From Nevskia sp. (GTDB lineage: Bacteria > Pseudomonadota > Gammaproteobacteria > Nevskiales > Nevskiaceae), in assembly GCA_031291075.1 (NCBI GenBank), contig JARLJS010000126.1, positions 1 through 58,956 of the forward strand: a stretch of DNA of 58,956 nt, read 5' to 3'. Each line of letters begins with the position of its first letter. Position 1 is the stretch's first letter. The position numbers and the translations under genes were made by a program. This document shows, in pieces, positions 27,969 to 50,792 of the stretch. Under the pieces are notes generated by a model. It saw only the letters and a list, made by a program, of their open reading frames with translations. It ran no database searches and had not been told where the DNA came from.

Positions 27969-30845
27969 TTACAGCGTCTTCAGGTACTCGACCAGCGCCT
28001 TGCGCTCCTGGTCGGTCAGCACCTGGGTGAACTGGTGCCCCTGGTTGGCGTGGCTGTAACCGGTGGCGTCATACACCTCGCGGTCGGCCACGGCATTGGG
28101 ACCGTCCAGGCCCGGCGACTGGAAGTAATCTGCCAGCACCTTGAGCGGCTTGAGCAGCAGGTCGGCGATGGTCGGCACGTCCTGCGGGTTCGCCGCGCAC
28201 AGGATGCGCGCGCTGTCCACCAGGGCGTTGCAGCCCAGCTTGTCGTACTTCCAGCCCAGGTTGGCGAAGTCGTAACCGTTGAGCGTGGTGTCGTAGCCGC
28301 GTTCGCCGCGCGCATTGGCGGTGGCAGCCAGCTGGCGCCGCCACACCATCGGACGATCCGAGGGCTTGAGCACGTCCCATACCGTCGGCACGCTGCCGTT
28401 GTGGAAGTACGGCGCCGCCGCCCATACGCCGTGCAGGGGCTGGGCGGTGTAGCCGAAGCCGCCCATGGCCTCGTAGCTGACGATCGGCGGCTGGCCGGTT
28501 CCCGGGGGCGGGCCAGGGCCCAAATCGTCGTCCAGCACCGCGCTCAGCAGGTTCCGCTTTGGCTGCGATTCCGGGATCACGTACTCGGACGAGGCATCCG
28601 GATATTCCATCCACAAATTGCCGAACGGGTTATACGGTTCGACCGCTTTGGCCACCCCCGCGACAAAAGTGGGAGCGCCGCTCAGGAACGCCCCGTCGGC
28701 GGGGTCGGTGCCGATGATGTTTCCCGGTACGACATATCCGCTCATGCCAATGAGGCTGGGATCGGGCAGGAAGCCCGGCTGGTTGGCGAACTGCGGCGAA
28801 TAGGCACCGTGACAGCCGGCACAGGAACCGTTGCCGCCCTGCGGCTTGGGAATGGCGGCGTTGGTGATGGTTTTGCCGTTGACGACCGTGCTGGCGGTCC
28901 ACAGGTTGAGGCTGTGGAACAGGATCGCGCCCTGCTCGGCCAGCGGCTTGTTGATGCAGGCCGGGTTGTCGTTCGGCCCCGGGCCGCCATCGGCGTTGGA
29001 GCAGTAGCCGTAGGGATAGGCCGGTGCCTCTACCGCGTTGAGCCAGGTGTCGAGGTCTTCGTAGTCGCCTTCGCGGTGCTTGATCCAGTCGCCGTCGTTC
29101 TTGGTAGTGGAGGACGGGAAGAAATCGTTACGTGCAAATCCGGAACTGTTCAAGCCTATCCATAGATAACGGGACTTGTTGTGCGTCCACCACCAGCTCG
29201 GCGTCTGCTGGTCGCCGCCGGTCAGCGGAATCGTGGGCACCAGCTTGCCGAGCACGCTCGGCTCCAGCGCAGGGCTGATCCAGTCCAGGGTCTTGAGGTC
29301 GCGGAACAACAGAACGTTGACGATCTCCTGGTCGGCCGCGTTGACGCCGCGCGAGCGGCTGGCCATGTAGCCGGGGAAATCCAGGATGACTTCGATCGAG
29401 TCTTTACCGTAGACGCCATTGGCCTGGTCCGCGTCGTAATAAAGCAGGCCGACGTCGACGTTGGTGCCGGGGCTGCCGGCGTAGAAGCCGTTGGGATTGG
29501 CACCGGTGATTTCGGGATGGCCGGCGGCCTCATAGTCCGCCGCTCCGGCGGAAGTCACTTCGCCGGAACCGATCTGGCCGAGGTGGCAGGCGAAGCAGGT
29601 GGCGCCGATGTTGCCGGTCCACTTGCCGCTGGCATCCTTGGTCTGCACCAGGCCCAGCGGCAATTGCACGCTGCCGCCGTTGGTGGCATTGGGGTCCTCG
29701 CCCGGCATCGGGAACGGGTTGGGATACGGCGACGGCGGATAGCCGTAGCGTGTGCCCACCACTTGCTGAAGCAGGGCGGTGGCCGCCGCCGGATCGGCCG
29801 GGACGGTGTATCCAAGGTACTTGGCCACGTTGTACAGCCCCGCTCCCGGGATCAAATCACCGGTGATGGGGTTGGAGAAGATGTACTTGCGCCCCGCATC
29901 GACCGAGGCGCGCCACTGGCCGCAGGTGCTGGGCCGCAGCTTGGCGGTGTACACGGGCTGCTTGCCCTGGGACACCAGGATGGCGTTCTGCTTGGCCTGG
30001 TTCTGGATCACCATGTTCCAGTCCGGCTCCTGGAACGGTGCGTTGAAGTACACCGCGTAGCTCGCGTTGTTGATGTTGCTGCCGGAGATCAGCTTGCGCG
30101 GATCGGGAGGAAGCGCCGCACTGTCGGGCTGGTTCTGGCAGAAGGCGGCGGCGTAGTTACGGCCGCCGGTGGCGTTCAGGTCGCCCAACAAGGGATAGCT
30201 GCCGCCGCTGCTGCTGCCACCGGAGCTGCCGCCGCTGGTGGTTCCGCTGCTGCTGCCTGAGCTGCCGGAACCGCTGCTGCTCGAACCGCTGCCGGAACCG
30301 CCGCCGCTGGAACTGCCGCTCGAACCGGTGGCGCCGCCCGAGCTGGAAGAAGAAGAAGAACTGGAGCTGCCGCTATCCGCGGCCCAGCTGTTCAGCACCG
30401 ACTCCATCGCCGAATACGCCGTGCCGCCGACAGTCCACACGCTGCCGCCGGGATGTCCCTGGCCGCCGGCCGGGTACACCAGCAGATCGTTCTGCGTCAC
30501 ATCCGCCGGCTGCGGCAGGTGCTGCCAGGCGGCGAGGAAGTTGGCGTAGTCCTGCGTCGCATCGCTGCTCAGCGTGAGCTGGTTGGCGATGGCGTAGCCG
30601 CTCTGGTTGGCAAGGCCACCGGCCATGTGGCACACACGGCAGTTGCCGCTCTGCACGTTGGGCTCCACGTTGGCATTGAAATAAGCCTGCGCCGCGGCGT
30701 CGCTGACCGCGTCGTGCGGGTTGGTGCCGGCCGCAGCCGGCGACAGCGCCTCGGATGTGCCGCTGCCGCCGCTGTCCTGTCCACTGCCGCAGGCACTCAA
30801 GGCCAGCGCCAGTATTGCAACCCAGCTCGCATAGCTACGCATCAT
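27969..30845 (-). CDS. Three-haem c-type cytochrome lipoprotein, RoxA/MauG-like
   Basis: 958 residues. Lipoprotein signal with lipobox LSAC (Cys19). Three haem c sites: C69-RV-C72-H73 in a small N-terminal domain, C417-FA-C420-H421 and C675-AG-C678-H679. A Ser/Gly linker (about 158-216) joins the small domain to the large one. The large domain carries blocks I associate with rubber-oxygenase RoxA-type and di-haem peroxidase/MauG proteins: QTPSWWWTHNKSRYLWIG, EDLDTWLNAVEAP, AGCHGAYSPQF, VVPGNIIGTDPA and PLHGVWAAAPYFHNGSVPT. A strong GGAGGAGAAC lies before ATG 30845. It is divergent from an AraC-type regulator and 0.5 kb upstream of the ccm operon. Family resemblance is from memory of motifs; substrate is unproven. 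Confidence 0.7.
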   Translation of the reverse strand: MMRSYASWVAILALALSACGSGQDSGGSGTSEALSPAAAGTNPHDAVSDAAAQAYFNANVEPNVQSGNCRVCHMAGGLANQSGYAIANQLTLSSDATQDYANFLAAWQHLPQPADVTQNDLLVYPAGGQGHPGGSVWTVGGTAYSAMESVLNSWAADSGSSSSSSSSSSGGATGSSGSSSGGGSGSGSSSSGSGSSGSSSGTTSGGSSGGSSSGGSYPLLGDLNATGGRNYAAAFCQNQPDSAALPPDPRKLISGSNINNASYAVYFNAPFQEPDWNMVIQNQAKQNAILVSQGKQPVYTAKLRPSTCGQWRASVDAGRKYIFSNPITGDLIPGAGLYNVAKYLGYTVPADPAAATALLQQVVGTRYGYPPSPYPNPFPMPGEDPNATNGGSVQLPLGLVQTKDASGKWTGNIGATCFACHLGQIGSGEVTSAGAADYEAAGHPEITGANPNGFYAGSPGTNVDVGLLYYDADQANGVYGKDSIEVILDFPGYMASRSRGVNAADQEIVNVLLFRDLKTLDWISPALEPSVLGKLVPTIPLTGGDQQTPSWWWTHNKSRYLWIGLNSSGFARNDFFPSSTTKNDGDWIKHREGDYEDLDTWLNAVEAPAYPYGYCSNADGGPGPNDNPACINKPLAEQGAILFHSLNLWTASTVVNGKTITNAAIPKPQGGNGSCAGCHGAYSPQFANQPGFLPDPSLIGMSGYVVPGNIIGTDPADGAFLSGAPTFVAGVAKAVEPYNPFGNLWMEYPDASSEYVIPESQPKRNLLSAVLDDDLGPGPPPGTGQPPIVSYEAMGGFGYTAQPLHGVWAAAPYFHNGSVPTVWDVLKPSDRPMVWRRQLAATANARGERGYDTTLNGYDFANLGWKYDKLGCNALVDSARILCAANPQDVPTIADLLLKPLKVLADYFQSPGLDGPNAVADREVYDATGYSHANQGHQFTQVLTDQERKALVEYLKTL

Positions 30846-31022: not shown

Positions 31023-32054
31023 ATGCGAACCGCAGAACTGGCCAAGCCGAGCGTCCCCATCAGCTATGTGCTGCTGACCCTCGAACTGGCGGCGGAACAC
31101 GGCGTCAGCCGCGAAGCCCTGTTCAAGGGCATGGCGATCGCCCCCGAACTGCTGCTGCAGCCGGATGCCCGGATGGGTTTGATGCAGTACGGGCACCTGT
31201 GCGTGCGGGCGCTGCAGCTGAGCCGCGAACCGGCCCTGGGTTACGAGTTCGGCCTGCGCAGCAACCTCACCGCGCACGGCTTCCTGGGCTTCGGCCTGAT
31301 GTGCCAGCCGACGTTGCGCGACGCCGTCGAGTTCGCCGTTCGCTTCTTCACGCCGCTACGCCTGCCCGGCTGGGACATGCGCTTCTTCGTCGAAGGTTCG
31401 CAGGCCGTGGCGCAGGCTTATGAGACCGTGCCTTATGGCCTGCTGCGGCAGTACGCGCTCGATATGATCCTGATCTCGCTGGTGACGACGTTCCGCCCCT
31501 TGCTGCCGCCGCAGCCGGACATCGAGCTGTGGTTCGACTGCCCCGAGCCGCCGTACTACGCGCGCTACCGCAGCCGCCTGCCGGCGATCCGCTTCGGCGC
31601 CGCCGCGAACCAGATGCGCTGTCCCGCCGCCTACCTGCAACGGCCGATCGAGACCGCCAACGCCGTCACGGGACAGCTGGTGACGCGCGAATGCGAGCGC
31701 GAGCTGGCGCTGCTGGGCCGCACCGACGACACGCTGCAACGGGTACGCGCCGCGCTGGTCAACGAGCAGAACAACTACCCGCCGCTGGAAGCGGTGGCGA
31801 AGCGCCTGTGCATGAGCACGCGTACGCTGGTACGTCGCCTGGGCGATCACGGCACCCATTACCGGGACCTGCTCGACGAGGCGCGCCACCGCGACAGCCT
31901 GCGCCTGCTGGAAGACCCGACACTGTCGCTGGAAGTCGTGGCCAGCCGCCTCGGCTACAGCAGTGCCGCGAACTTCTCGCGTGCCTTCCGCGGCTGGACC
32001 GGCACCTCGCCCGGCAGCTTCCGCGACAGCATGGCGGCCGCGATACCGGCATAA
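31023..32054 (+). CDS. AraC-family transcriptional regulator (OruR/ArgR-like N-terminal domain)
   Basis: 343 residues. N-terminal ligand-binding domain of the 'arabinose-binding-like' type (about 15-205; GLMQYGHLCVRALQLSREPA, LTAHGFLGFGLMCQPTLRDA) and C-terminal double HTH (about 245-335) with AVAKRLCMSTRTLVRRLGD and EVVASRLGYSSAANFSRAFR. Relatives control catabolic genes for lipids, alkanes, steroids or amino acids. Divergent from the RoxA-like cytochrome with 177 bp between starts, the classical place for a local activator. The ligand is unknown. Confidence 0.88.
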   Translation: MRTAELAKPSVPISYVLLTLELAAEHGVSREALFKGMAIAPELLLQPDARMGLMQYGHLCVRALQLSREPALGYEFGLRSNLTAHGFLGFGLMCQPTLRDAVEFAVRFFTPLRLPGWDMRFFVEGSQAVAQAYETVPYGLLRQYALDMILISLVTTFRPLLPPQPDIELWFDCPEPPYYARYRSRLPAIRFGAAANQMRCPAAYLQRPIETANAVTGQLVTRECERELALLGRTDDTLQRVRAALVNEQNNYPPLEAVAKRLCMSTRTLVRRLGDHGTHYRDLLDEARHRDSLRLLEDPTLSLEVVASRLGYSSAANFSRAFRGWTGTSPGSFRDSMAAAIPA

Positions 32055-32110: not shown

Positions 32111-32968
32111 TTGACCGCCCAACTGATTGACGGCAAGGCCGTCGCCGCGCAGGTGCAGGCGCGCGTGCGCGATGCGGTGTCCGCGCGCCTCGCCGCCGGC
32201 AAGCGCGCCCCGGCCCTGGCCACGGTGCTGGTGGGCGCCGATGCCGCCTCCGAGATCTATGTGCGCAACAAGCGCCGCAGCTGCGAGGCGGTGGGCATCC
32301 GCTCGACGCCGGTGCACTTCGAAGCCGACGTAACGCAGGAGCGGCTGCTGGCCGAGGTGGACCGGCTCAACGCCGACCCCGACATCGACGGCATCCTGGT
32401 GCAGCTGCCGCTGCCCAAGCACATCGACAGCACCCGCGTGATCGAGCGCATCCGTCCCGACAAGGACGTCGACGGCTTCCATCCCTACAACCTCGGGCGC
32501 CTGGCGCAACGCATGCCGGCGCTGCGTCCCTGCACGCCCTACGGCGTGATCGAGCTGCTCAAGGCCAGCGGCGAAACCTTCCACGGCAAGCGCGCCCTGG
32601 TGGTCGGTGCCAGCAACCACGTCGGCCGGCCGATGGGGCTGGAGCTGCTGCTGGCCGGCTGCACCACCACCATCGCCCATCGCTTCACCCGCGACCTGGA
32701 CCAGGAGGTGGCGCGCGCCGAGCTGCTGGTGGTGGCGGTGGGCAAGCCGGGCTTCGTTCGCGGCGCCTGGGTGCGGCCGGGCGCCACGGTGATCGACATC
32801 GGCATCAACCGCCTGGCCGACGGCAAGCTGGTGGGCGACGTGGAGTTCGAAACGGCGCGCGAGCGCGCGGCCTGGATCACGCCGGTGCCGGGCGGCGTGG
32901 GCCCGATGACCGTGGCCATGCTGATGGAGAACACGCTGGAGGCGGCGCAACTGCGCGAAGCGGCCTGA
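32111..32968 (+). CDS. folD: Methylenetetrahydrofolate dehydrogenase/cyclohydrolase
   Basis: 285 residues with FolD signatures: active-site Y and K in [44 protein letters not shown] and the C-terminal [21 protein letters not shown]. It interconverts 5,10-methylene-, methenyl- and 10-formyl-THF with NADP. The start is TTG 32111 with GGAG 10 nt upstream; no ATG gives the conserved N-terminus ([13 protein letters not shown]). Housekeeping gene with no clear link to its neighbours. Confidence 0.96.
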
Positions 32969-33058: not shown

Positions 33059-34222
33059 ATGAACCAGCGCACCGCGTCCGGCCCGGCCTCGCCGTTCTAC
33101 ACCGAGGACCACGAGAACTTCCGCGCCCAGGTGCGGCGTTTCGTCGACAGGGAGATCGCACACCACATCGAGCAATGGGAAGCGGCGGGCGAGCTGCCGC
33201 GCGAGCTGCACCGCAAGGCCGCTGAAGCCGGCGTCCTCGGGGTAGGCTTTCCGGAGACCTGCGGCGGCATCGAGGTGCCGGACGGCTTCTATGGCATCGT
33301 GGTGACCGAGGAACTGGCCCGCGCGGGCTCGGGCGGACTGCTGGCGAGCCTGATGAGCCACGGCATCGCTTCGCCGCCGATCGTCAACGTCGGCACGCCG
33401 GAACAGAAGGAGCGCTTCGTGGCGCCGGTGCTGGCCGGCGACAAGATCGCCGCGCTGGCCATCACCGAGCCCAGCGGCGGCTCCGACGTGGCCAACATCC
33501 GCACCACCGCCCGCCGCGAGGGCGACCACTACGTCGTCAACGGCTCCAAGACCTTCATCACCTCCGGCATGCGCGCGGACCTGCTGACGGTGGCGGTACG
33601 CACCGGCGATGCAGGCCTCGGTGGCGTGTCGCTGCTGGTGATCGAGGCCGGCACGCCGGGCTTCACCCGCAGCAAGCTCGAGAAGATGGGCTGGTGGTGC
33701 TCCGACACCGCCACGCTGTACTTCGACGAGTGTCGCGTGCCGGTGGTCAACCGCATCGGCGCGGAGAATGCCGGCTTCATGGCGATCATGCTCAACTTCA
33801 ACAACGAGCGCATCATGCTGGCGGCGCAGGCCTGGGCCTTCGCCAAGCTGTGCTACGAGGAAGCGCTGGCCTACGCGCGCGAACGCCAGACCTTCGGCAA
33901 GCCGCTCATCACGCGCCAGGTGATCCGCCACAAGCTGGTGGACATGAAAACGCAGATCGACGCGGTGAAGGCTCAGCTCGACCTGTTGTGCTGGCGCGTG
34001 TCGAAGCGCCAGATGCCGGTGGCGGAAGTGTGCATGCTGAAGAACCTCGCCACGCGCACGCTCGAGGACGTGGCCGGTGAAGCCGTGCAGATCCTCGGCG
34101 GTGCCGGCTACCTGCGCGGCGCCAAGGTCGAGCGCGTGTTCCGCGAGACCAAGGTGTTGTCGATCGGCGGCGGCGCCACGGAAATCATGAAGGACCTGGC
34201 GGCCAGGCAGCTGGGTTACTAG
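33059..34222 (+). CDS. Acyl-CoA dehydrogenase
   Basis: 387 residues with the ACAD fold: substrate/FAD signature ALAITEPSGGSDVANIRTTA at about 137-156, GSKTFITSG, and C-terminal LGGAGYLRGAKVERVFRET with IGGGATEIMKDL. A Glu lies in the helix-G position (FNNERIMLAA), as in isovaleryl- and long-chain-type enzymes, and the C-terminal YEGT-type Glu is absent. It oxidises an acyl-CoA to the 2-enoyl-CoA and passes electrons to ETF. No Shine-Dalgarno is seen before ATG 33059. It lies upstream of the porins and is plus-strand, opposite to the atu-like cluster, whose atuD it resembles. Confidence 0.93.
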   Translation: MNQRTASGPASPFYTEDHENFRAQVRRFVDREIAHHIEQWEAAGELPRELHRKAAEAGVLGVGFPETCGGIEVPDGFYGIVVTEELARAGSGGLLASLMSHGIASPPIVNVGTPEQKERFVAPVLAGDKIAALAITEPSGGSDVANIRTTARREGDHYVVNGSKTFITSGMRADLLTVAVRTGDAGLGGVSLLVIEAGTPGFTRSKLEKMGWWCSDTATLYFDECRVPVVNRIGAENAGFMAIMLNFNNERIMLAAQAWAFAKLCYEEALAYARERQTFGKPLITRQVIRHKLVDMKTQIDAVKAQLDLLCWRVSKRQMPVAEVCMLKNLATRTLEDVAGEAVQILGGAGYLRGAKVERVFRETKVLSIGGGATEIMKDLAARQLGY

Positions 34223-34675: not shown

Positions 34676-34931
34676 ATGCGCCCGCGCGAACGCAGCCGCG
34701 GCATCTGGCTATGGAGTGCGTCGTGCTAAGAATAATTTGCGGCACTTGCCTGATCATTACCGGCTCTGGCGAATGTCCGTTCCTATGACCTGACCGCGAA
34801 GCCCGGCGGCCCCGCACGCCGAGCGCTATTTCCCGTTTGTTGAGTTTGTTGCGCGTTGCAAACGCCCGTCAGCCGATGCCCCCACGGCGCGGGATCGTTG
34901 TTTCCACTAACAAGAAATGGAGCAGTACGAC

Positions 34932-36215
34932 ATGAAGCAGTTATCGCGTCACCCCATGCGCTGGGCGGTCTCGGCGGTGTTCCTCGCCGCCACGCCCATC
35001 GTCGCGCAGGCCGGCGAAGGCCCTTACCTCGGCCTGGAAACCGGCGCCAACTTCGAGCGTCCGCAGAGCTACAACTTCAATGGCACCGATCTCGGTTCGC
35101 TGCACTTCGACACCGGTTGGGTCGGCGGGATCGTCGGCGGCTATTCCCTGTCCAGCGGACTGCGTCCGGAGCTGGAGCTGAACTACCGCAGCAACTTCGT
35201 GCGTGACGCCTTTCCGGGCCCGACCGGGGGCGGCCCCAACGCCAACGGCCGCCAGGATGCGCAGGGCATCTTTGCCAACCTGTGGTATGACGTGAGCCTG
35301 CCGGGCGGCGGCTGGCTGCAGAACCTGCATCCGTACTTCGGCTTCGGTGTCGGCGGGCTGCGCTTCGCCGATCGCGGCCTCAACTTCGGCGGCATCCAGC
35401 GCAACAACGACTGGGCGGCCAAGCCGGCTCTGCAGCTTGGCACCGGCGTCGGCTACGACATCACGCCGCAGCTGACGGCCTCGGTGGACTACCGCTACGT
35501 GCAGAGCCAGCGCGGCTACATCAATCCGGGGCTCGGCACCACCGGCAACCCCACGGCGCGTTACGCCGCCAATTCGGCGCTGGTGAGCCTGCGCTATTCC
35601 TTCGGCGAGAAGCCTGCGCCGGCGCCGGAACCCATGGCGCCGCCTCCCCCGCCGCCACCGGCCCTGCCGCCGCCTCCCCCGCCGCCGCCGCCGTGCCATG
35701 CCCCCGCGGGCTTCAAGGTGGATGCGAACTGCCACATCATCCCGCAGGAAGTGGTGGTGCGCGCGGTGGACTTCGAGTTCAACTCGGCCAAGCTCACCGC
35801 ACCGGCGCAGCAGACGCTGGATGAGGTAGCCACCGCGCTGGTGGCGCAGCCCGAGCTGAACGTGGAAGTGCAGGGCCACACCGACTCGGTCGGCAAGGCC
35901 GCGTACAACCTCAGGCTGTCGCAGAAGCGTGCGGACGCGGTCAAGGCCTACCTGGTGGGCAAGGGCGTCAACGGCTCGCATCTGGTCGCCAAGGGTTACG
36001 GCAAGACCAAGCCGATCGCCAGCAACGACACGGTCGAGGGCCGCGCCCAGAACCGCCGCGTCGAGTTCGAAGTGACCAACGCCCCGGCCCACGTCAACGT
36101 GAAGTCGGCAGGTGCCACCGCCGCCTCCACCGCGGCGGCCCAGGAAGGTCAGCCGTCGAAAGCCGTGAAGAAGAAAAAGAAGCACAGGAAGGCCGCCGCG
36201 ACGACCTCGCCGTGA
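34932..36215 (+). CDS. OmpA/OprF-like outer-membrane protein (copy 1)
   Basis: 427 residues. Start ATG 34932 (MKQLSRHPMRWAVS) is chosen because copy 2 begins the same way; an in-frame ATG 15 nt earlier is possible. Signal peptide to AQA (about 26); eight-stranded beta-barrel domain (about 27-220) ending in VSLRYSFGEKP; proline-rich hinge; OmpA C-terminal peptidoglycan-binding domain (about 275-385) with GHTDSVGKAAYNLRLSQKRA and GRAQNRRVEFEV. The tail is unusually basic (KKKKKHRKAAA). It anchors the outer membrane to peptidoglycan and may form a pore. A CRP-type promoter lies upstream and a terminator downstream. Confidence 0.92.
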   Translation: MKQLSRHPMRWAVSAVFLAATPIVAQAGEGPYLGLETGANFERPQSYNFNGTDLGSLHFDTGWVGGIVGGYSLSSGLRPELELNYRSNFVRDAFPGPTGGGPNANGRQDAQGIFANLWYDVSLPGGGWLQNLHPYFGFGVGGLRFADRGLNFGGIQRNNDWAAKPALQLGTGVGYDITPQLTASVDYRYVQSQRGYINPGLGTTGNPTARYAANSALVSLRYSFGEKPAPAPEPMAPPPPPPPALPPPPPPPPPCHAPAGFKVDANCHIIPQEVVVRAVDFEFNSAKLTAPAQQTLDEVATALVAQPELNVEVQGHTDSVGKAAYNLRLSQKRADAVKAYLVGKGVNGSHLVAKGYGKTKPIASNDTVEGRAQNRRVEFEVTNAPAHVNVKSAGATAASTAAAQEGQPSKAVKKKKKHRKAAATTSP

Positions 36216-40509: not shown

Positions 40510-41670
<1,161 letters not shown>

Positions 41671-41683
41671 GGTCCGCACTCCT

Positions 41684-43315
41684 CTACAAACGTGCCACGC
41701 CGAAGCTGTTCGACTGCAGGCGGCGCGCCCGCCCTTCCTGGCAGATCGACAGCGTATAGCCCAGCACCTTGCGCGTGTCGCGCGGGTCGATCAAGCCGTC
41801 GTCGAACAGGCGCGCGCTGGCATCGAAGGCGTCGGATTCACGGTCGAACTGCTTGATGATGTTCTGGCGGATGGCGGCGAGCATCTTCTCGTCGGTCTCG
41901 CCCATCTGTTTGCCCTCCTTCAGCCACTTCTCGCGGGTGATGATCTCCATCACGCCAGCCGCCTGCTCGCCGCCCATCACCGAGGTGCGCGAATTGGGCC
42001 AGGCGAAGATGAAGTCGGGCGAGAAGCCGCGGCCGCACATGCCGTAGTTGCCGGCGCCGAAGGAGCCGCCGATGACCAGGGTGATCTGCGGCACGCTGGC
42101 GTTGGCCACCGCCTGGATCATCTTGCTGCCGTGCTTGACGATGCCGCCCTGCTCCGACTCGGTGCCGACCATGTAGCCGGTGGTGTTCATCAGGTACACG
42201 ATGGGGATGTCGGCCTGGCAGCAAAGCTGGATGAACTGGCCGGCCTTGGTGGCGCCGCGCACGGTGATCGGCCCGTTGTTGCCGATGATGCCGACCTGGT
42301 GGCCATGAATCATGGCGCGGCCGCAGATGGTCTGCTGATCGTACTCGTTCTTGAACTCGAGGAACTCGCTGGCGTCGACGACGCGGGCGATCACCTCGCG
42401 GCAGTCGTAAGGCTTGCGATAGTCCACCGGCACCACGCCGCACAGCTCGTCGACGTCGTACAGCGGCGCGCGTACCTCGCGCAGCTGCAACTGCGGCCGG
42501 TGCTTGTTCCAGTCCAGGTTGCGCACGATCTCGCGCGCGATGCGGATGCCGTCGGCATCGTTCTCGGCGATGAACTCGCTGGTGCCGGCGATCTGGCAGT
42601 GCATCTCGGCGCCGCCCAGGTCCTCGTCGACGGCGATCTCGCCGGTGGCGGCCTTGAGCAGGGGCGGGCCGGCCAGGAACACCTTGGCGTTGCGGCGGAC
42701 CATCACCACGTAGTCGGACAGGCCCGGCATGTAGGCGCCGCCGGCGGTGGAGGAGCCGTGCACCACGCAGACCTGGGGTATGCCCAGCGCCGACAGGCGC
42801 GCCTGGTTGGCGAAGGTCTTGCCGCCGGAGATGAACAGCTCGGACTGGTACATCAGGTTGGCACCGCCGGATTCGATCATGCCGACGCAGGGCAGCTTCT
42901 GCTCCATGGCGATGTCCTGCACGCGCAGACCCTTCTGCACACCCCACGGCGTCATGGTGCCGCCCTTGATGGCGAAGTTGGACGCCGACACCATGCAGCG
43001 CACACCGGCGACGTAGCCGATGCCGATGATGGTGTTGCCGCCGGCCAGCGAGCCGTCCTTGTCGTCGTGCATCTTGTAGCCGCACAGGGTCTGCAGCTCC
43101 AGCCAGGGGCTGCCGCGGTCCAGCATCATGTGCACCCGCTCGCGCGGCAGCATCTGGCCCCGCTTGTGGAAGCGCTCGCGCTTGCTCTCCTCCTCCGCCC
43201 GCCCCTTGGCCTCGATTGCCCGGAACTCGGCGACCCGGGCCAGCATCTCCTCCCGGTTCTGCCTGAACTGGGGGCTGAGGGCATCGACCTTCGATTCGAT
43301 AATTGGCATTTCCAA
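41684..43315 (-). CDS. atuC: Acyl-CoA carboxylase carboxyltransferase subunit, AtuC-like
   Basis: 543 residues with both carboxyltransferase halves: N-half with GGGNTIIGIGYV-like core, VGMIESGGANLMYQ and VVHGSSTAGGAYMPGLSDYV; C-half with IIGNNGPITVRGATKAGQFI, YLMNTTGYMVG and VIGGSFGAGNYGMCGRGFSP. It transfers carboxyl from biotin on AtuF to the gamma-methyl carbon of a 3-methyl-2-enoyl-CoA (geranyl-CoA in AtuC, methylcrotonyl-CoA in LiuB). Length (543) is nearer AtuC (about 538) as I recall it. It is preceded by an AT-rich gap after atuB. Confidence 0.86.
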   Translation of the reverse strand: MEMPIIESKVDALSPQFRQNREEMLARVAEFRAIEAKGRAEEESKRERFHKRGQMLPRERVHMMLDRGSPWLELQTLCGYKMHDDKDGSLAGGNTIIGIGYVAGVRCMVSASNFAIKGGTMTPWGVQKGLRVQDIAMEQKLPCVGMIESGGANLMYQSELFISGGKTFANQARLSALGIPQVCVVHGSSTAGGAYMPGLSDYVVMVRRNAKVFLAGPPLLKAATGEIAVDEDLGGAEMHCQIAGTSEFIAENDADGIRIAREIVRNLDWNKHRPQLQLREVRAPLYDVDELCGVVPVDYRKPYDCREVIARVVDASEFLEFKNEYDQQTICGRAMIHGHQVGIIGNNGPITVRGATKAGQFIQLCCQADIPIVYLMNTTGYMVGTESEQGGIVKHGSKMIQAVANASVPQITLVIGGSFGAGNYGMCGRGFSPDFIFAWPNSRTSVMGGEQAAGVMEIITREKWLKEGKQMGETDEKMLAAIRQNIIKQFDRESDAFDASARLFDDGLIDPRDTRKVLGYTLSICQEGRARRLQSNSFGVARL

Positions 43316-43412: not shown

Positions 43413-44282
43413 TCAGGACCTGCCCAGCGCCTTCGGATGCACGGCGCGATGGAAACCGCCGTAAGGCTTGGAGTTGGCGCCGCCCTGCAGCGGGAACAGC
43501 TTGGTGTTGCGCGAGGCGCCGCCGTCGATGGCGATGCAGGCGCCGTTGATGAAGGCGGCGGCCGGCGTCAGCAGGAACACGATCGCCGCCGAGATCTCCG
43601 CCTCCTCCGCCAGCCGCTGCAGCGGCACCGCTCCGCGCAGCCGCGGGATGAATTCCTTCTGGAAGGTCTCGTCGTAGTTGTCGAGCCCGCTGGAAGCGAC
43701 CCAGCCCGGCGCCACCGCATTGACCCGCACGCCGGCGTGCGCCCACTCCACCGCGGCGGTCTCGGTGAAGTTGAGCATGCCCGCGCGCGCCGCGCCGGAG
43801 TGCCCCATGCCGGGCATGCCGCCCCACATGTCGGCCAGCATGTTGACGATCGCGCCGCCGCTCCTGCGCATGGCCTGGTTGAACACCTCGCGCGCCACCA
43901 GGAAGCCGCCGGTGAGGTTGTTGTTGACCACCGCCTCCCAGCCCTTCTTGGAGATCGCCATCAGCGGCGCGGGGAACTGGCCGCCGGCGTTGTTGACCAG
44001 GCCGTGGATGGTGCCGCGCTCGGCGACGATGGCCTTCACCGCCTGCTTCACGGCGTCCTCGTCGCGGATGTCGAAGGCGTGCGTCGAGCACTCGCCGCCG
44101 TCCTCGCGGATCTCGGCGGCCACCGTCTGCAGCTTCTCCGGCTTGCGCCCCACCAGCACCACGTGCGCGCCGAGCGATGCCAGCTCGTGCGCGGTGCAGC
44201 GGCCGATGCCGGAACCGCCGCCGGTGACGATGATGTTCTGGCCGGCGAACAGGCCAGGATGGAATACCGAACGGTAATGCAT
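43413..44282 (-). CDS. atuB: SDR-family oxidoreductase, AtuB-like with DECR-type active site
   Basis: 289 residues from ATG 44282, with GGAGGAAAG upstream. Rossmann motif TGGGSGIG at 20-27, NNAGGQFPAP and VNNNLTGGFLVA. The classical catalytic YxxxK is absent: the matching place reads GHSGAARAGMLNFTETAAVE, as in 2,4-dienoyl-CoA reductases, which also lack that Tyr. The product is therefore likely an enoyl- or dienoyl-CoA reductase rather than an alcohol dehydrogenase. In Pseudomonas atuB precedes atuC, as here. It could reduce dienoyl-CoA intermediates of branched unsaturated chains. Confidence 0.8.
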   Translation of the reverse strand: MHYRSVFHPGLFAGQNIIVTGGGSGIGRCTAHELASLGAHVVLVGRKPEKLQTVAAEIREDGGECSTHAFDIRDEDAVKQAVKAIVAERGTIHGLVNNAGGQFPAPLMAISKKGWEAVVNNNLTGGFLVAREVFNQAMRRSGGAIVNMLADMWGGMPGMGHSGAARAGMLNFTETAAVEWAHAGVRVNAVAPGWVASSGLDNYDETFQKEFIPRLRGAVPLQRLAEEAEISAAIVFLLTPAAAFINGACIAIDGGASRNTKLFPLQGGANSKPYGGFHRAVHPKALGRS

Positions 44283-44349
44283 ATTCTTTCCTCCAAAAAC
44301 GAACAAGGCCGGTTTCCCGGCCTTGTCGCAATTGCTCAACTCTCCAACG

Positions 44350-44438
44350 TCGTCATTCCCGCGCAAGCCGGAATCCAGGGAATTCCGCGCCACCGGTTGG
44401 CAGCGCACTGGATACCGGCTTTCGCCGGTATGACGACG
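44350..44438. repeat. Dispersed inverted repeat, copy 2
   Basis: Left arm CGTCATTCCCGCGCAAGCCG..., right arm ...GGATACCGGCTTTCGCCGG..., with CCAG/CTGG inner edges. Same family as 34257-34345. It lies in the 171-bp gap between etfA and atuB. Confidence 0.75.
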
Positions 44439-44453: not shown

Positions 44454-45392
44454 TCACAGCTTCGAAGTCAATTCCGGCACCACCTGGAACAGGTCGCCCA
44501 CCAGGCCGAAGTCGGCGACTTCGAAGATCGGCGCCTCCGCGTCCTTGTTGATGGCGACGATGGTGCGGGCATCCTTGATGCCCGCCAGGTGCTGGATCGC
44601 ACCCGAGATGCCGATGGCGAAGTACAGCTCCGGCGCGATGATCTTGCCGGTCTGGCCCACCTGCATGTCGTTTGGAACGTAGCCCGAGTCCACCGCGGCG
44701 CGCGAGGCGCCGACGCCGGCCTTCAGCTTGTCGGCCAGGGCGTAGATGACCTTGAAGTTCTCGGAGCTGCCCAGCGCGCGGCCGCCGGAGACGACGCGGG
44801 CGGCGGACTGCAGCTCCGGGCGCTCGCTCTTCTGCGCCTCCAGCTTGACGAAGCGGGTATGGGACGGCAGCGCCGCGTCCACCGAGACTTTCTCCACCGG
44901 GGCGGAGCCGCCGGAACCCACTGCCGCGAACGAGGCCAGGCGGATGGTGGCGACCACTGCAGGCGCCGCCGGGGCTTCCACGGTCAGGATGGCGTTGCCG
45001 GCATAGATCGGCCGGTCGAAGCTGGTCGGCCCGTGCACGGCCATGACGTCGGACACCTGCTGTACGCCGAGCTTGGCCGCGACGCGCGGCAGCAGATCCT
45101 TGCCGAACGTCGTGCCGGGGGCGAAGACGTGGCTGTAACCCTTCTTCGCCAGCTCGACCACCTGCGGCGCAACCACGGCGGAGAGCGCGTGGTCGTTCTC
45201 GGCGCGGTCGATCTGCAGCACCTTGGTGACGCCGTCCAGCTTGGCGGCCTCGGCGGCGGCGGCGCTGCCGTCCTTGGCGAAGACGGCGACTTCGATTTCG
45301 CCGCCGATCAGTTTGGCGGCCGCGACCACCTTGGCGATGCTGCTGCTCAGCTTGCCGTCGGCCTGCTGGCCGATGATTAGAATCTTGCTCAT
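44454..45392 (-). CDS. etfA: Electron transfer flavoprotein alpha subunit
   Basis: 312 residues. N-terminal domain begins [16 protein letters not shown]-terminal FAD domain has [38 protein letters not shown] and [18 protein letters not shown] with the final [17 protein letters not shown]. With EtfB it collects electrons from acyl-CoA dehydrogenases such as AtuD and passes them to ETF-QO. Length matches the family. Separated from etfB by a 153-bp structured repeat element. Confidence 0.97.
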
Positions 45393-45545: not shown

Positions 45546-46292
45546 TCAGATCAGCCCTTTGCCCTTCAGCGCCGTCACCAGTTCGTCGACGGTCTTCACC
45601 ATCACGCCCTTGCTGCGCTTGGGCGGAGCGGCGGTCTTGGTGGCCTTGAGGCCGGCGGCGGCGGTGACGCCCAGATCGCCCAGGCTCACGACTTCGATCG
45701 GCTTCTTCTTCGCCTTCATGATGTCCGGCAGCTTGAGGTAGCGCGGCTCGTTCAGGCGCAGGTCGGTGGTGACCACGGCGGGCAGATCCACTTCCAGGGT
45801 CTCCAGGCCGGCGTCGACCTCGCGGGTCACCAGGGCCTTGGCGCCGTCGAGCTCGATCTTGGAGGCGAAGGTGGCCTGCGGCAGGTCGAGCAGGGCGGCG
45901 ACCATCTGCCCGGTCTGGTTGGCGTCGTCGTCGATGGCCTGCTTGCCCAGCAGGAACAGCTGCGCGCCTTCCTTCTTGAACACGGCGGCCAGGGCCTGCG
46001 CCGCGGTCAGCGGCTGCACCTCGCCTTCCTCCTTGACGTGCACGGCGCGGTCGGCACCGAAAGCCAGGGCGGTGCGCAGGGTTTCCTCGCACTTGGCGCC
46101 GCCGATGGTGACGGCCACGATCTCGGTGACCTTGCCCTTTTCCCTCAGGCGCACCGCTTCTTCCATGGCGATTTCGTCGAACGGGTTGACGCTGAACTTC
46201 ACACCGTCCGTGACCACGCCGGAGCCGTCCGGCTTCACCTGGATGCGGACGTTGTAGTCCACTACGCGCTTAACGCTCACCAATGCTTTCAT
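45546..46292 (-). CDS. etfB: Electron transfer flavoprotein beta subunit
   Basis: 248 residues from ATG 46292 with AGGAAGAG upstream. Starts [56 protein letters not shown] and [20 protein letters not shown] (the ETF-beta recognition loop for acyl-CoA dehydrogenases) are all present. Upstream lie a 50-bp tandem repeat and a heptamer array. Partner of etfA downstream. Confidence 0.97.
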
Positions 46293-46452: not shown

Positions 46453-46480
46453 AGGGGAGAGCAGCGAGGAAGAGCTTGTC

Positions 46481-46508: not shown

Positions 46509-46517
46509 GTTGTCAGA

Positions 46518-47162
46518 TCAATCCCGGCGGCCGGCCACTTGTTCACGCCTGCGCGCGAACTCTGCCGCACTACCCATGCTGAAGTCCAGATCGCGCGCCA
46601 GACCGTCCTTGAGCCCGTAGACCCAGCTGTGCACCCACAACTCCTGTCCACGCTCCCAGGCGTCGCGCACGATGGTGGTTTCGCAGACGTTGGCCGCCTG
46701 CCTGATGACGTTCAATTCGCACAAGCGGTCGGCGCGGGAGTCGTCGTCGGCGATGCCGGTCAGTTCCGGCAGATGGCTGTCGGCCACGTCGCGCACATGC
46801 TGCAACCAGTTGTCGGCCAGCCCCAGCCGCTGCCGCTCCAGCGCGGCGCGCACGCCGCCGCAGCCGTAATGGCCGCAGACGATGATGTGCTTGACCTTGA
46901 GCGCATCCACCGCGAACTGCAGCACCGACAGGCAGTTCAAGTCAGTGTGCACCACCACGTTGGCGATGTTGCGGTGGACGAACAGCTCGCCCGGTGCCAG
47001 GTCCACGATCTCGTTGGCCGGCACCCGGCTGTCGGCGCAGCCGATCCACAGGTACTCCGGCGTCTGCTGCTTGGCCAGCGAGGCGAAGAAACCCGGACGC
47101 TGCACCTCGGTGCGCATCGCCCAGGAGCGGTTCCTCTTCAGCAGATGGTCGAGAGCGCCCAC
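46518..47162 (-). CDS. can: Beta-class carbonic anhydrase
   Basis: 214 residues from GTG 47162 (GALDHLLKRNRSWA), chosen because it gives the N-terminus of E. coli Can-type enzymes; no strong Shine-Dalgarno is seen and the open frame extends further. Zinc site residues: C and D in WIGCADSRVPANEIV, H and C in CGHYGCGGVRAALE. LFVHRNIANVVVHTDLNCLS is typical. It interconverts CO2 and bicarbonate. It lies between ETF-QO and etfB in a cluster that ends with a bicarbonate-using acyl-CoA carboxylase, so a supply role is plausible. Confidence 0.92.
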   Translation of the reverse strand: MGALDHLLKRNRSWAMRTEVQRPGFFASLAKQQTPEYLWIGCADSRVPANEIVDLAPGELFVHRNIANVVVHTDLNCLSVLQFAVDALKVKHIIVCGHYGCGGVRAALERQRLGLADNWLQHVRDVADSHLPELTGIADDDSRADRLCELNVIRQAANVCETTIVRDAWERGQELWVHSWVYGLKDGLARDLDFSMGSAAEFARRREQVAGRRD

Positions 47163-47199
47163 GGAATGATCGGCTCGGTTGTGAGGGGACCCGGATGGC

Positions 47200-48858
47200 C
47201 TACATGTTCGCGTAGTTGGGCCCGCCGGACCCTTCCGGCGCCACCCAGGTGATGTTCTGCGCCGGGTCCTTGATGTCGCAGGTCTTGCAGTGCACACAGT
47301 TCTGCGCGTTGATCTGGAATTTCTTGGCGCCGCCGGCCTCGATCACCTCGTATACGCCGGCCGGGCAGTAGCGCTGCGCCGGCTCGTCGTACATCGGCAG
47401 GTTCTTCGAGATCGGGATGGTCGGGTCGGTCAACTTGAGGTGGACCGGCTGGTCCTCCTCGTGGTTGGTGCTGGAGAGGAACACCGAGGACAGCTTGTCG
47501 AAGCTGATCACGCCGTCCGGCTTGGGGTATTCGATCTTCTGGCTCTGTGCCGCCGGCTTGAACGTGCTGTAATCCGGTGTGTTGTCGTGCAGGGTGATCG
47601 GGCTCTTGCCGCGGAACCAGTTCTGGTCGATGTAGTTGAATGCCGCCCCGAACAACACGCCGAACTTGTGCATGGCCGCGCCGAAGTTGCGATCGCGGTA
47701 GAGCTCGTCGTAGAGCCAGCTCGCCTTGAAGCTCTCGGGGTAGGCGGCCAGTTCGTCGCCGCCTTCGGAACCCGCGATCAGCGCGGCCGCGGCGGCGTCC
47801 GCCGCCAGCATGCCGGATTTCATGGCGGTGTGGCTGCCCTTGATCTTGGAAAAATTGAGGGTGCCCAGGTCGCAGCCGAGCAGGGCGCCGCCCGGGAACA
47901 CCATTTTCGGCAGCGAATTGAAGCCGCCCTTGCAGATGGCCCGCGCACCGTAGGAGACGCGCTTGCCGCCTTCGAGGTATTTCCTCAGTACCGGGTGGTG
48001 CTTGAGACGCTGGAACTCGTCGAACGGCGACAGGTAGGGGTTGCTGTACGACAGGTCGACAATGAGGCCAACGTAGACCTGGTTGTTCTCCAGGTGGTAC
48101 AGGAAGAAACCGCCGGGATTGGCGCTGTTGAGCGGCCAGCCGGCGCCGTGAATGACCAGGCCCGGCTCGTGCTTGGCCGGGTCGATAGTCCACAGTTCCT
48201 TCAGGCCGATGCCGTAGTGCTGCACGTCGGACTGCTCGTCCAGCTTGTAGTGCTTGAGCAGGCGCTTGCCCAAGTGGCCGCGGCAGCCTTCGGAGAACAG
48301 GGTGTACTTGGCGCGCAGCTCGATGCCCGGCGTGTAGACGCCCTCCTTGGGCTTGCCGTCGTGGCCGATACCCATGTCGCCGACCTGCACGCCGCGTACG
48401 ACGTTCTTCTCGTCGATCAGGACCTCCTGGGCGGCGAAGCCGGGGTAGATCTCCACCCCCAGGCTTTCGGCCTGCTGCGCCAGCCAGCGGCACAGGTTGC
48501 CGAGCGAAATGATGTAGTTGCCCTCGTTGTGCATGGTGTGGGGCACGAACGGGCCGGGCGTCTTGATGCCCTTCTCCGGGCTGGTGAAGAACCACACCTC
48601 GTCGCGCTTGACCGGCGTGCTGAGCGGCGCGCCCAGCTCCTTCCAGTTGGGGAACAGCTCGTTGAGCGAGCGCGGCTCGAATACCGCGCCGGACAGGATG
48701 TGAGCACCGACTTCCGAGCCCTTCTCGACCAGGCAGACGGAGATTTCCTTGCCGGCCTCGGCCGCTTTCTGCTTGATGCGGCAGGCGGCGGACAAGCCGG
48801 CGGGACCGGCGCCTACGACCAGGACGTCGTATTCCATTACATCGCGTTCAACGCTCAT
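47200..48858 (-). CDS. Electron transfer flavoprotein-ubiquinone oxidoreductase
   Basis: 552 residues from ATG 48858. FAD-binding VLVVGAGPAGLSAACRIK near the N-terminus; GAHILSGAVFEPRSLNELFP; a ubiquinone/membrane region around GGFNSLPKMVFPGGALLGCD; C-terminal 4Fe-4S site with RYCPAGVYE and CVHCKTCDIKDPAQNI. It oxidises reduced ETF and reduces ubiquinone at the inner membrane, joining AtuD-type dehydrogenases to respiration. Length matches the family (about 550). Starts on an adjacent ATG pair are possible (MEYDVLVV at 48837). Confidence 0.96.
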   Translation of the reverse strand: MSVERDVMEYDVLVVGAGPAGLSAACRIKQKAAEAGKEISVCLVEKGSEVGAHILSGAVFEPRSLNELFPNWKELGAPLSTPVKRDEVWFFTSPEKGIKTPGPFVPHTMHNEGNYIISLGNLCRWLAQQAESLGVEIYPGFAAQEVLIDEKNVVRGVQVGDMGIGHDGKPKEGVYTPGIELRAKYTLFSEGCRGHLGKRLLKHYKLDEQSDVQHYGIGLKELWTIDPAKHEPGLVIHGAGWPLNSANPGGFFLYHLENNQVYVGLIVDLSYSNPYLSPFDEFQRLKHHPVLRKYLEGGKRVSYGARAICKGGFNSLPKMVFPGGALLGCDLGTLNFSKIKGSHTAMKSGMLAADAAAAALIAGSEGGDELAAYPESFKASWLYDELYRDRNFGAAMHKFGVLFGAAFNYIDQNWFRGKSPITLHDNTPDYSTFKPAAQSQKIEYPKPDGVISFDKLSSVFLSSTNHEEDQPVHLKLTDPTIPISKNLPMYDEPAQRYCPAGVYEVIEAGGAKKFQINAQNCVHCKTCDIKDPAQNITWVAPEGSGGPNYANM

Positions 48859-48974
48859 TTTTCGGTGCTCTCGGAGCCGCACGCCGGGCGCGCGGCCGCT
48901 TGGGACGGGAGTTGGGGCCTGAGGAACTGCTTATTTTACCCGGTCCGCCCAAGGATGCGACTGGCCGGCGGGCA

Positions 48975-50792
48975 TTACCCACCCAAAGAATGGGCCAAGG
49001 CCCTCGGCACCGGCACCGGGTAATCGAGCAGCATCTGCGCGAAGGCCTTGCCCTGCGGGTCGGTGCGCAGCGAGGCGGCGCCCCCCGCGCCGAGGGCATG
49101 GTGGAGCAGGAAATTCAGGCTCAGGCTACCGGGCAGCTCCCAGCGCTCCACCCGCCCCGCCTCGCCGCCGGCCAGGACATGGGCGAAGTACCGGCGCACA
49201 TTTGTGGTGCTGAGGGCGCTCCTGATGTAGGGCAGGTATTCGGCCTTGCGCGCCGCCACGCCGATGTTGGCGTGGTCGCCCTTGTCGCCGGAGCGCGCCA
49301 CCGCCAGCCGGATCAGGGGCACGGTCACCGCCGGATCCAGGTCCAGGCGCGGCAACTCTTCAGCTTCCGGCGCGGACGGGTGGAAGCCGCCCTGCAGCGG
49401 CACCGCCACCGCGAAACGCTCCTCACCCACCATCACCTCGATGGCGACGCGCTCCTTCGGCACCAGCGTGGAGAACAGGCGCGGGATCATGTGCGGCTCC
49501 GGCCGGCCGCTGCCGAAATAACCGGTGAAGCCCGGCGCCATGGCGGTGGCGGCCTGCACGATCTCGCGCGAGAACAGCTTGAGCGCCTTGGGATTGGGAT
49601 GGTGCACGGCGATCTTGACCACCACCTCGCGCGTGGCGGCCGCGCCGGCGCGGGCATGGGGGCCGTAGGTCTCCTCGGCCCCGACGCAGTGAATGTCCAC
49701 GCCGGTGAAATCGCCCAGGCCGGCCTCCAGCAGCTGCCGCCGCACCTTCTCCACCACCGCCGTGGCCGAGGCGCGACCTTTGCGCGCGGCGTCGATGCCG
49801 CCGATCATGAACAGCGCCGCGCAGCGCAGGCCGGCGGGATAGGTCGCGCTGACCTTGTAGGACGCGGTGGGCGGATAGCCGCGGGCGCCGGTGACGCGCA
49901 CCCGCTGCTCCCCCACCTGCTCCAGCCGCACCCCGGTGAAATCGCACACCACGTCCGGCAGCAGGTAGGCGCGCGGGTCGCCGATCTCGTACAGCATCTG
50001 CTCCAGCACCGAGGGCACGCTCACCAGTCCGCCGGTGCCCTCCGGCTTGGTGACGACGAAGCTGCCGTCCGGCTCGACCTCGACGATGGGGAAGCCCATG
50101 TCGGCGAAGCCCGGAGCCACCAGCTCCCAGTCGGTGAAATTGCCGCCGGTGCACTGGGTACCGCATTCGATGATGTGGCCGGCGACCGAGCCGGCCGCGA
50201 GCTTGTCGTATTCGTCCTCCTTCCAGCCGAATTCGTGCATCAGCGGGCCGAGCACCACCGCCGAATCGACACAGCGCCCGGTGATGACGATCTCCGCCCC
50301 GGCGTCGAGGGCGCGCGCGATGGGGATGGCGCCGAGATAGGCGTTCATCGACACCAGGGTGCCTGGCATGGGCTTGCCGCTGTCGATTTCGGTGCAATCC
50401 GCGAATTCCTTGCGGCGCGCCAGCAGGTCGTCGCCCAGCACCACGCCGACCTTGAAGGCCACCCCGGCCTTGGCCGCGGCCGCTTCCAGCGCCTTCTTGC
50501 AGGCCAGCGGATTGACCCCGCCCGCGTTGGCCACCACGCGGATCCCGCGCTGCTTGATCTCGGTCAGCAGCGGCGCCATCACGTGCTCGACGAAATCGGT
50601 GGCGTAGCCGTCGTTCGGGTCCTTCATGCGCTTGGCGGCGAGGATCGACATGGTGATCTCGGCCAGGTAGTCGAAGACCAGGTAATCGACGTTACCTTTT
50701 TGCACCAACTGGGCCGCGGCTGTGTTCGTGTCGCCCCAAAAAGCGGAGGCGCAGCCGATGCGGATGGAATTGTTCGATCTTGCGGTATTCAT
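48975..50792 (-). CDS. atuA: AtuA-like protein (DUF1446 family)
   Basis: 605 residues. N-terminal DUF1446 region begins [17 protein letters not shown] and includes [30 protein letters not shown] and [20 protein letters not shown]. The C-terminal portion (about 470-600) contains [17 protein letters not shown], the usual C-terminal domain. AtuA is required for citronellol/geraniol growth in Pseudomonas but its reaction is unknown. Similar proteins also occur outside atu clusters. Here it is the most upstream gene of the metabolic run, with ETF-QO directly after it. Confidence 0.85.

What the first reader, a model, noticed from the sequence alone, without database searches (positions are those of the whole stretch)
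27969..50792. Possible polyisoprenoid/terpenoid oxidation locus: RoxA-like cytochrome, ccm genes and an atu cluster
The sequence shows, within 23 kb, a large three-haem exported cytochrome with RoxA/MauG-like blocks, a divergent AraC-type regulator, two acyl-CoA dehydrogenases, porins, and an atuA...atuBCDEF run with ETF and ETF-QO; the ccm haem-attachment genes lie next to the cytochrome. Known: RoxA-type c-type cytochromes cleave polyisoprene outside the cell to oligo-isoprenoids; Atu enzymes degrade acyclic terpenoid acids with 3-methyl branches. Inference: the cytochrome starts and the Atu enzymes finish the oxidation of isoprenoid chains. I know of no described locus joining the two.
Basis: partly seen in the sequence, partly recalled or inferred. 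Interest (0 to 1): 0.72.

Follow-up and report, generated by a model that had tools for sequence, protein, structure and literature searches.

The report
Rox-like haem lipoprotein beside core genes
A bacterial gene for a three-haem surface protein related to rubber-cutting enzymes sits near terpene-breakdown genes, but comparison with related genomes suggests the two are neighbours by position rather than one pathway; the haem protein itself belongs to a small, untested branch of the family.

Summary
The protein at 27969-30842 (957 aa) is a Rox-family cytochrome: closest solved structure RoxA 4b2n, three CXXCH motifs, a lipobox, acidic pI, RoxA's haem ligands. The run 37678-50792 is an atu set whose AtuC meets the published geranyl-CoA carboxylase criteria. 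The proposed joint pathway is not supported. In 10 of 13 relatives examined, ccmA and folD lie 93-831 bp apart with no rox gene between; the order ccm-folD-ACAD-ompA-atu was seen without rox in three congeners. Rox-AtuA pairs within 25 kb: 1.01 expected by random placement, 2 seen, one being this window. No AtuA or AtuC was found in 85 other rox stretches, though these reach only about 10 kb. What recurs is an adjacent AraC-type regulator. The protein is below the curated RoxA, RoxB and RoxC cut-offs and sits in its own seven-member clade, which keeps RoxA's Trp302, lost in the two tested RoxCs. Most likely it is an envelope-anchored haem oxygenase for an unknown unsaturated hydrophobic substrate. 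In passing: Rox-like genes recur beside the flavinylated DUF3570/DUF4266/redoxin/ApbE module.

The parts
27969..30842 (-). Rox-like tri-haem lipoprotein, 957 aa (CRVCH 68-72, CFACH 416-420, CAGCH 674-678; MauG-type motif PYFHNGSVP from 811; RYLW from 558)
31023..32054 (+). AraC-type regulator (PF12625 + HTH_18), divergent from the rox gene; the recurrent partner of this rox subgroup
27450..27844 (-). truncated ParE-like ORF (27450-27656) and a 63-aa ORF upstream of it with no Pfam match, between ccmA and the rox gene
20437..27420 (-). cytochrome c maturation (ccm) genes, part of the conserved backbone
32111..32968 (+). folD, which adjoins ccmA in 10 of 13 relatives examined
33059..34222 (+). 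acyl-CoA dehydrogenase of the backbone
34917..36215 (+). OmpA-type outer-membrane protein 1
36427..37602 (+). OmpA-type outer-membrane protein 2
37678..39666 (-). atuF, biotin carboxylase subunit
39656..40486 (-). atuE, enoyl-CoA hydratase family
40510..41679 (-). atuD, acyl-CoA dehydrogenase
41684..43315 (-). atuC, geranyl-CoA carboxylase-type beta subunit
43413..44408 (-). atuB, short-chain dehydrogenase
44454..45392 (-). etfA
45546..46262 (-). etfB
46518..47297 (-). carbonic anhydrase inside the atu run
47200..48882 (-). ETF-ubiquinone oxidoreductase
48975..50792 (-). atuA

Best explanation
The 23-kb region is two things side by side. (1) A conserved chromosomal backbone, ccm-folD-acyl-CoA dehydrogenase-ompA-atuFEDCB-etfAB-ETF-QO-atuA, whose parts keep this order in congeners. 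(2) A two-gene unit, rox-like plus divergent araC, which stands between ccmA and folD here and in none of the 10 relatives examined in which ccmA and folD adjoin. The Rox-like protein is a lipoprotein with an N-terminal c-haem domain (probably bis-His, from conserved H72 and H130), a Ser/Gly-rich linker and a RoxA-fold di-haem catalytic domain. Most likely it is held at the outer membrane, receives electrons through the N-terminal haem, and oxygenates an unsaturated hydrophobic chain at the CFACH haem, under control of the AraC-type protein. Shown: family, haem motifs and ligands, lipobox, clade, backbone synteny. Inferred: location, electron route, substrate class, regulation. No link to the Atu enzymes is needed.
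For: Family and fold: RoxA 4b2n E 3.6e-90; AlphaFold model pLDDT 76.6, pTM 0.84, with 4b2n the only PDB match at E <= 0.001 (2.6e-36, TMt 0.79). RoxA's axial ligands H195, H394 and H641 (numbers from PMC10837239; placed by counting along the alignment) correspond to H420, H678 and H936; these and the MauG-motif H814 are invariant in 43 Rox-like sequences. Own clade: 7 rows, SH-aLRT 100, in a tree of 65 rows out of 119 aligned domains. Trp302 kept in 7 of 7 of that clade. Backbone: folD and ccmA 93-831 bp apart in 10 of the 13 relatives I chose out of 58 others with a folD match, against 4,690 bp here; order on to atu seen in G003, G004 and G017. AraC within 4 genes in 5 of 6 full-length places of this subgroup and in 22 of 86 rox places overall, directly adjacent in 16 of 86. 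Rox-AtuA pairs within 25 kb: 1.01 expected, 2 seen, one of them the window that was picked for it.
Against: In G018 a rox-araC pair of the same subgroup (another branch) lies about 5 kb from folD and about 15 kb from a second-type atuC, so rox near folD may be older than one insertion and often lost; gain or loss was not tested. Phe317, essential in RoxA, is not clearly kept: the ungapped position is Pro with Phe just before it, and the F301 position is Leu. There is no substrate evidence; two RoxCs tested elsewhere showed no rubber activity (unpublished results told in PMC10837239). The 85-place test sees only about 10 kb either side (both sides at least 6.8 kb in 53 of 85), while AtuC and AtuA lie 11-20 kb from rox in the window. 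A shared operator in the rox-araC gaps was weak.
Confidence: 0.7

Rival explanations
1. One reading: the Rox-like protein cleaves isoprenoid chains outside the cell and the neighbouring Atu enzymes degrade the resulting 3-methyl-branched acids.
For: Both parts are real. G018 also has a rox of this subgroup within 20 kb of an atu-type cluster. 21 of 22 rox-positive genomes carry AtuA.
Against: The atu backbone exists without rox in congeners. AtuA is in 30 of 39 rox-negative genomes too, p = 0.079. Pairs within 25 kb are at chance level. In 85 other rox stretches no AtuA or AtuC, and AtuF-like proteins in 2, neither with an AtuD- or AtuE-like protein (reach about 10 kb). In the window folD, an acyl-CoA dehydrogenase and two omp genes on the other strand lie between rox and atu, so they are not one transcript.
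Confidence: 0.12
2. A fatty-acid or membrane-lipid dioxygenase, in the manner of Pseudomonas 10S-DOX (PA2077), a RoxA relative that keeps the Trp between the haems.
For: PMC4496055 (passages): PA2077 acts on monounsaturated fatty acids, groups with RoxA and has W251 where RoxA has W302; the window protein keeps this Trp. PMC10837239 suggests unsaturated fatty acids for RoxCs. In G037 a fatty acid desaturase gene neighbours the second rox of this subgroup; MMPL, DUF1329 and DUF1302 genes neighbour the paralogue on contig 75, an MMPL gene that of G018.
Against: No sequence comparison with PA2077 was made here. The neighbour genes differ from place to place.
Confidence: 0.3
3. A cytochrome without oxygenase activity (electron carrier, peroxidase or sensor) that kept the Rox fold.
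For: The two RoxCs tested so far showed no rubber oxygenase activity and ferric haems as isolated. The F317 position is uncertain and F301 is Leu; in RoxA F301L kept 14% activity and F317 variants little or none (PMC6797691, passages).
Against: Trp302 and the haem ligands are conserved; the catalytic domain matches RoxA's fold.
Confidence: 0.2

Closest known systems
RoxC group of Rox-related proteins (NCBIfam NF051462; PMC10837239)
   Same: Lipoprotein signal, N-terminal third haem CRxCH, acidic pI (4.73 here; 5.04 and 4.63 for the two in its Table 1), best NCBIfam score of the three (606.6 bits)
   Different: Below the 900-bit cut-off; keeps Trp302 where the two tested RoxCs have Phe; its clade is separate from the one that holds Fontimonas RoxC
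RoxA (PDB 4b2n), rubber oxygenase
   Same: Fold, haem ligands, MauG-type motif PYFHNGSVP, Trp302
   Different: 399.4 bits against a cut-off of 1000; CFACH instead of CSXCH at haem 1; extra N-terminal haem domain and lipobox; F301 is Leu, F317 uncertain
Acyclic terpene utilisation (atu) cluster of Pseudomonas, with geranyl-CoA carboxylase (PDB 5ikl, PMC4673880)
   Same: atuA-F content and order; AtuC 773 bits to the GCC beta chain against 533 to the MCC beta chain of Pseudomonas; Gly at the Gly162 position and no three-residue insertion
   Different: etfA, etfB, ETF-QO and carbonic anhydrase lie within the run; no atuG or atuH seen next to it (Pseudomonas gene order recalled, from no call)
10S-DOX / FadCcp of Pseudomonas aeruginosa (PMC4496055)
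   Same: RoxA-related di-haem oxygenase with Trp between the haems
   Different: Not compared by sequence here; the term lipoprotein has no hit in that paper's main text

Membership tests
RoxC | NCBIfam NF051462 score over 900 bits | tested here: not met
   606.6 bits
RoxC | Lipoprotein signal with Cys after the cleavage site (most RoxCs) | tested here: met
   ...ALSAC, Cys18, by reading the sequence; no signal predictor run
RoxC | Third, N-terminal haem motif (many but not all RoxCs) | tested here: met
   CRVCH 68-72 with H72 and H130 in 90% or more of 11 sequences
RoxC | Phe317 and Trp302 of RoxA replaced | tested here: not met
   Trp302 kept; F317 position Pro with Phe just before it
RoxC | Branches with characterised RoxC (Fontimonas) | tested here: not met
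   Separate clade, SH-aLRT 100, quick tree
RoxA | NCBIfam NF050033 score over 1000 bits | tested here: not met
   399.4 bits
RoxA | Haem-1 motif CSXCH | tested here: not met
   CFACH
RoxA | Phe317 at the haem-bound O2 | tested here: inconclusive
   HMMER pairs a Phe with F317 through a one-residue gap; the MAFFT column gives Pro
RoxA | Cleaves polyisoprene to ODTD | not testable with these tools
   needs an enzyme assay
RoxB | NCBIfam NF050034 score over 900 bits | tested here: not met
   370.3 bits
Rox superfamily | RoxA-like cytochrome c domain PF21419 and RoxA fold | tested here: met
   75.2 bits against cut-off 26.7; Foldseek 4b2n on a predicted model
atu cluster / geranyl-CoA carboxylase | Gly in place of MCC Phe191 and no three-residue insertion in the beta subunit | tested here: met
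   alignments read by eye against the criteria
atu cluster / geranyl-CoA carboxylase | AtuA family PF07287 | tested here: met
   495.3 bits against 22.8
atu cluster / geranyl-CoA carboxylase | AtuE at the curated gamma-carboxygeranoyl-CoA hydratase score (NF004227) | tested here: not met
   152 bits against 426

The most novel reading that the evidence does not exclude
A fourth, so far unnamed Rox subgroup: AraC-controlled, outer-membrane-anchored tri-haem oxygenases that kept RoxA's inter-haem Trp302, attack unsaturated isoprenoid or lipid chains, and are supplied with electrons from the periplasm, in Stagnimonas by an adjacent flavinylated DUF3570/DUF4266 module.
Probability: 0.2. Interest if true: 0.6.

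Novelty: new variant of a known kind. Interest (0 to 1): 0.36.

Why it matters
It removes an attractive but positional link between rubber-type oxygenases and terpenoid catabolism, and points instead to a Rox subgroup that differs from both tested RoxCs at a catalytic position. RoxC function is described as unknown (PMC10837239). A subgroup that keeps Trp302, with a recurrent regulator and, elsewhere, a flavinylated partner module, is a better starting point for finding what these proteins do.

Tried and rejected
Joint rox-atu pathway: tested by synteny, by places and by random placement and not supported. One search also put general family relatives near rox: ACAD1-like in 22, AtuB-like in 21, AtuE-like in 10, AtuD-like in 9, AtuF-like in 2 of 85 places; these are big enzyme families, and no place has an AtuF-like with an AtuD- or AtuE-like protein. 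That ccm next to the cytochrome is meaningful: ccm adjoins folD in relatives without rox there, so rejected. That the atu cluster is a leucine (MCC) cluster: rejected by the GCC criteria. A shared operator in seven rox-araC gaps: best 14-mer in 5 of 7 with up to 3 mismatches against at most 3 in 8 shuffles, but two gaps are close orthologues and the window's own match has 3 mismatches; not used. Foreign composition of rox and araC: GC 66.1% and 68.5% against 66.5-73.4% for nine neighbours; not informative. First gene calling with a model trained on the window missed genes in G037, so it was repeated with self-training; the caller is home-made and starts are approximate. Neighbour clusters are connected components named from one to three Pfam-checked members each. 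In one search I left out two of the 22 rox-positive genomes, G006 (one weak match) and G032 (no AtuA), and merged rox matches by eye. The tree used 65 of 119 domains, up to six or seven per residue class and all seven of the window's class.
Full report
Setting. The window is contig 1 of a 5.65-Mb draft genome in 302 contigs. Its genus is probably Nevskia: three contigs of the congener G007 have the lengths of records titled Nevskia sp. RYN_593 (8,482, 5,435 and 12,039 bp). This is inference.

The observation. The cytochrome gene is best read from 30842, giving 957 aa with a lipobox at Cys18, haem motifs CRVCH (68), CFACH (416) and CAGCH (674), a Ser/Gly-rich linker at about 160-215, and a computed pI of 4.73 for the mature protein. 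It matches Pfam RoxA-like_Cyt-c at 75.2 bits and RoxA 4b2n at E 3.6e-90. An AlphaFold model from a 43-sequence alignment has mean pLDDT 76.6 and pTM 0.84; Foldseek returns 4b2n as the only PDB match at E <= 0.001.

Which Rox. NCBIfam gives RoxC 606.6 bits (cut-off 900), RoxA 399.4 (1000) and RoxB 370.3 (900); none is met. From the loci in hand I collected 132 Rox-like ORFs, of which 119 had a near-complete catalytic domain. At the columns of RoxA Trp302 and Phe317, defined on the Sphingomonas kyeonggiensis protein, the window protein has Trp and Pro; the residue before the Pro is Phe. Trp is kept in 30 of 119: 18 of RoxA type, 7 with the local motif YLW, 5 others. Of the seven YLW proteins five have Trp and Phe, two (the window and G037) Trp and Pro. 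The two tested RoxCs have Phe and Ala there (PMC10837239 Table 1, section 7 read), as do 35 of 119 here, Fontimonas among them. The seven form one clade with SH-aLRT 100 in a 65-row quick tree, apart from RoxA (one clade, 100) and from Fontimonas RoxC; the deeper order is less firm (86-88). In RoxA F301L kept 14% activity and F317 variants little or none (PMC6797691, passages); the window protein has Leu at the F301 position. The genome has many paralogues: 11 PF21419 places, among them three RoxB-like genes on contig 20 at 892, 854 and 834 bits, just under the cut-off of 900. No place passes the RoxA or RoxB cut-off; one passes RoxC only when its neighbours in the frame are summed.

The atu cluster. 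AtuA matches PF07287 at 495 bits. AtuC scores 773 bits to geranyl-CoA carboxylase 5ikl and 533 to methylcrotonyl-CoA carboxylase 3u9r, lacks the three-residue insertion and has Gly where the paper places Gly162 (PMC4673880, passages). The gap placement around this Gly is my reading of the alignment. AtuF's best PDB match is an MCC alpha chain, with no GCC alpha chain among the 60 shown, and AtuE is below its curated score, so the exact substrate is not settled.

Are they one locus? Three tests. First, backbone synteny. I looked at folD in 13 relatives (L033, L053-L057, L059-L065) out of 58 others with a folD match. In 10, folD and ccmA are 93-831 bp apart, and of the 13 stretches only L033 has a rox match; in three (G018, G022, G024) ccmA is not next to folD in the stretch fetched. 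In the window the gap is 4,690 bp and holds rox, araC and a truncated ParE-like ORF. In G003, G004 and G017 the order ccm-folD-ACAD-ompA-atuFED is seen without rox, with one to four other genes between folD and ACAD. Parts of the atu core were seen in further congeners. Second, places. In 85 other rox places (about 1.59 Mb) no AtuA or AtuC relative was found at E <= 1e-10 over half the query; two AtuF-like proteins (48% and 43%) were, neither with an AtuD- or AtuE-like one; members of the large ACAD, hydratase and SDR families were common. The stretches reach about 10 kb at most: both sides at least 6.8 kb, the window's distance from rox to atuF, in 53 of 85, neither side in 8. AtuC and AtuA at the window's distances would mostly be out of view. 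Third, random placement, which has no such limit but suffers from short contigs: with rox and AtuA places read off, 20 genomes give 1.01 expected pairs within 25 kb; two are seen, the window and G018 (P of two or more 0.27). AtuA occurs in 51 of 61 genomes, rox by protein match in 22 of 61.

Against this stands G018, a near-complete genome: araC and a rox of the same subgroup lie about 5 kb from folD and about 15 kb from a second-type atu cluster whose AtuC and AtuA are 45-50% identical to the window's. That cluster was fetched as a separate stretch and is not among the 85 places. Its rox belongs to another branch of the subgroup. This could mean an old rox site near folD with frequent loss. 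It does not restore a link to the same atu cluster.

What does go with this rox. An AraC-type regulator (cluster with PF12625) is within four genes in 22 of 86 rox places and directly adjacent in 16; in the window's subgroup 5 of 6 full-length places, plus a truncated paralogue on contig 48 (Fisher p = 0.004, relatedness not corrected). A TetR-type cluster is the commonest partner overall, 25 places.

Mechanism. The conserved ligands (H420; H678 with H936) and MauG-type motif (H814), and the fold, argue for RoxA-type chemistry at the CFACH haem, with Trp as the electron bridge and the N-terminal domain (H72, H130) as an entry for electrons. Location at the outer membrane, electron donor and substrate are inference. 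Unsaturated lipids are as open as isoprenoids: PA2077, a fatty-acid dioxygenase, also keeps the Trp (PMC4496055, passages).

Novelty. One paper in the held library has both 'rubber oxygenase' and 'RoxC' (PMC10837239). In the 20 shown of 27 papers no rubber paper has the word atu, and in the 15 shown of 28 no title or abstract start describes a rox-atu locus; I saw listings only. Sharma et al. 2020, cited in PMC10837239, was not looked up, so the subgroup may be visible in its trees. I rate the finding as an ordinary neighbourhood that holds a new variant of a known family.

Noticed in passing
L066:9582-13833, L095:9875-14204, L045:1-4753 and other rox places: Rox-like genes recur beside the DUF3570/DUF4266/redoxin/ApbE module: clusters with DUF3570 in 23, DUF4266 in 17, redoxin in 16 and ApbE in 11 rox places (of 86) within four genes. 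In two Stagnimonas places a rox of the window's subgroup is followed directly by DUF4266 and DUF3570. In 61 genomes 11 of 22 DUF3570 rows of 158-225 bits lie within 6 kb of a PF21419 match, 0 of 15 rows over 300 bits (my reading; weaker rows and fragments not classed). The flavinylation paper PMC8238504 has no hit for RoxA or rubber in its main text; none of the 10 shown of 29 papers holds 'rubber oxygenase'.
   Followed up: partly
L037 (G000 contig 20), 1-10597: Three RoxB-like genes, an acyl-CoA dehydrogenase and an MFE-2-type protein (SDR, hydratase, MaoC, SCP2) on one strand; an 85% identical MFE-2-type protein and an acyl-CoA dehydrogenase lie near a rox gene in congener G007 (L083). A likelier rox plus acyl-CoA oxidation unit than the one in the window.
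   Followed up: partly
L046:10198-11442: A 414-aa protein with three haem motifs; the same stretch shows three successive matches to the N-terminal haem part of the RoxC model. Pfam finds nothing.
   Followed up: no
RoxA-type loci, mainly of Myxococcus and relatives, e.g. L103, L121: RoxA-type genes lie near acyl-CoA dehydrogenase (10 of 15 places), thiolase and 3-hydroxyacyl-CoA dehydrogenase genes (8 of 15 each); most records are close relatives.
   Followed up: no
window 46518-47297: A carbonic anhydrase gene lies within the atu/ETF run and is near atuA and ETF-QO in five congeners looked at (L047, L048, L050-L052); it could supply bicarbonate to the carboxylase.
   Followed up: partly
L034, L049: A second type of AtuA/AtuC/AtuF cluster, about 42-54% identical to the window's proteins, in G018 and G004.
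   Followed up: no
window 27450-27656: Truncated ParE-like toxin ORF (26 bits, 33 profile positions of 89) between ccmA and the rox gene.
   Followed up: no
window 38346-38426: ARAGORN calls a tRNA-Ser (cga) on the + strand inside atuF, which is coded on the - strand; possibly spurious.
   Followed up: no
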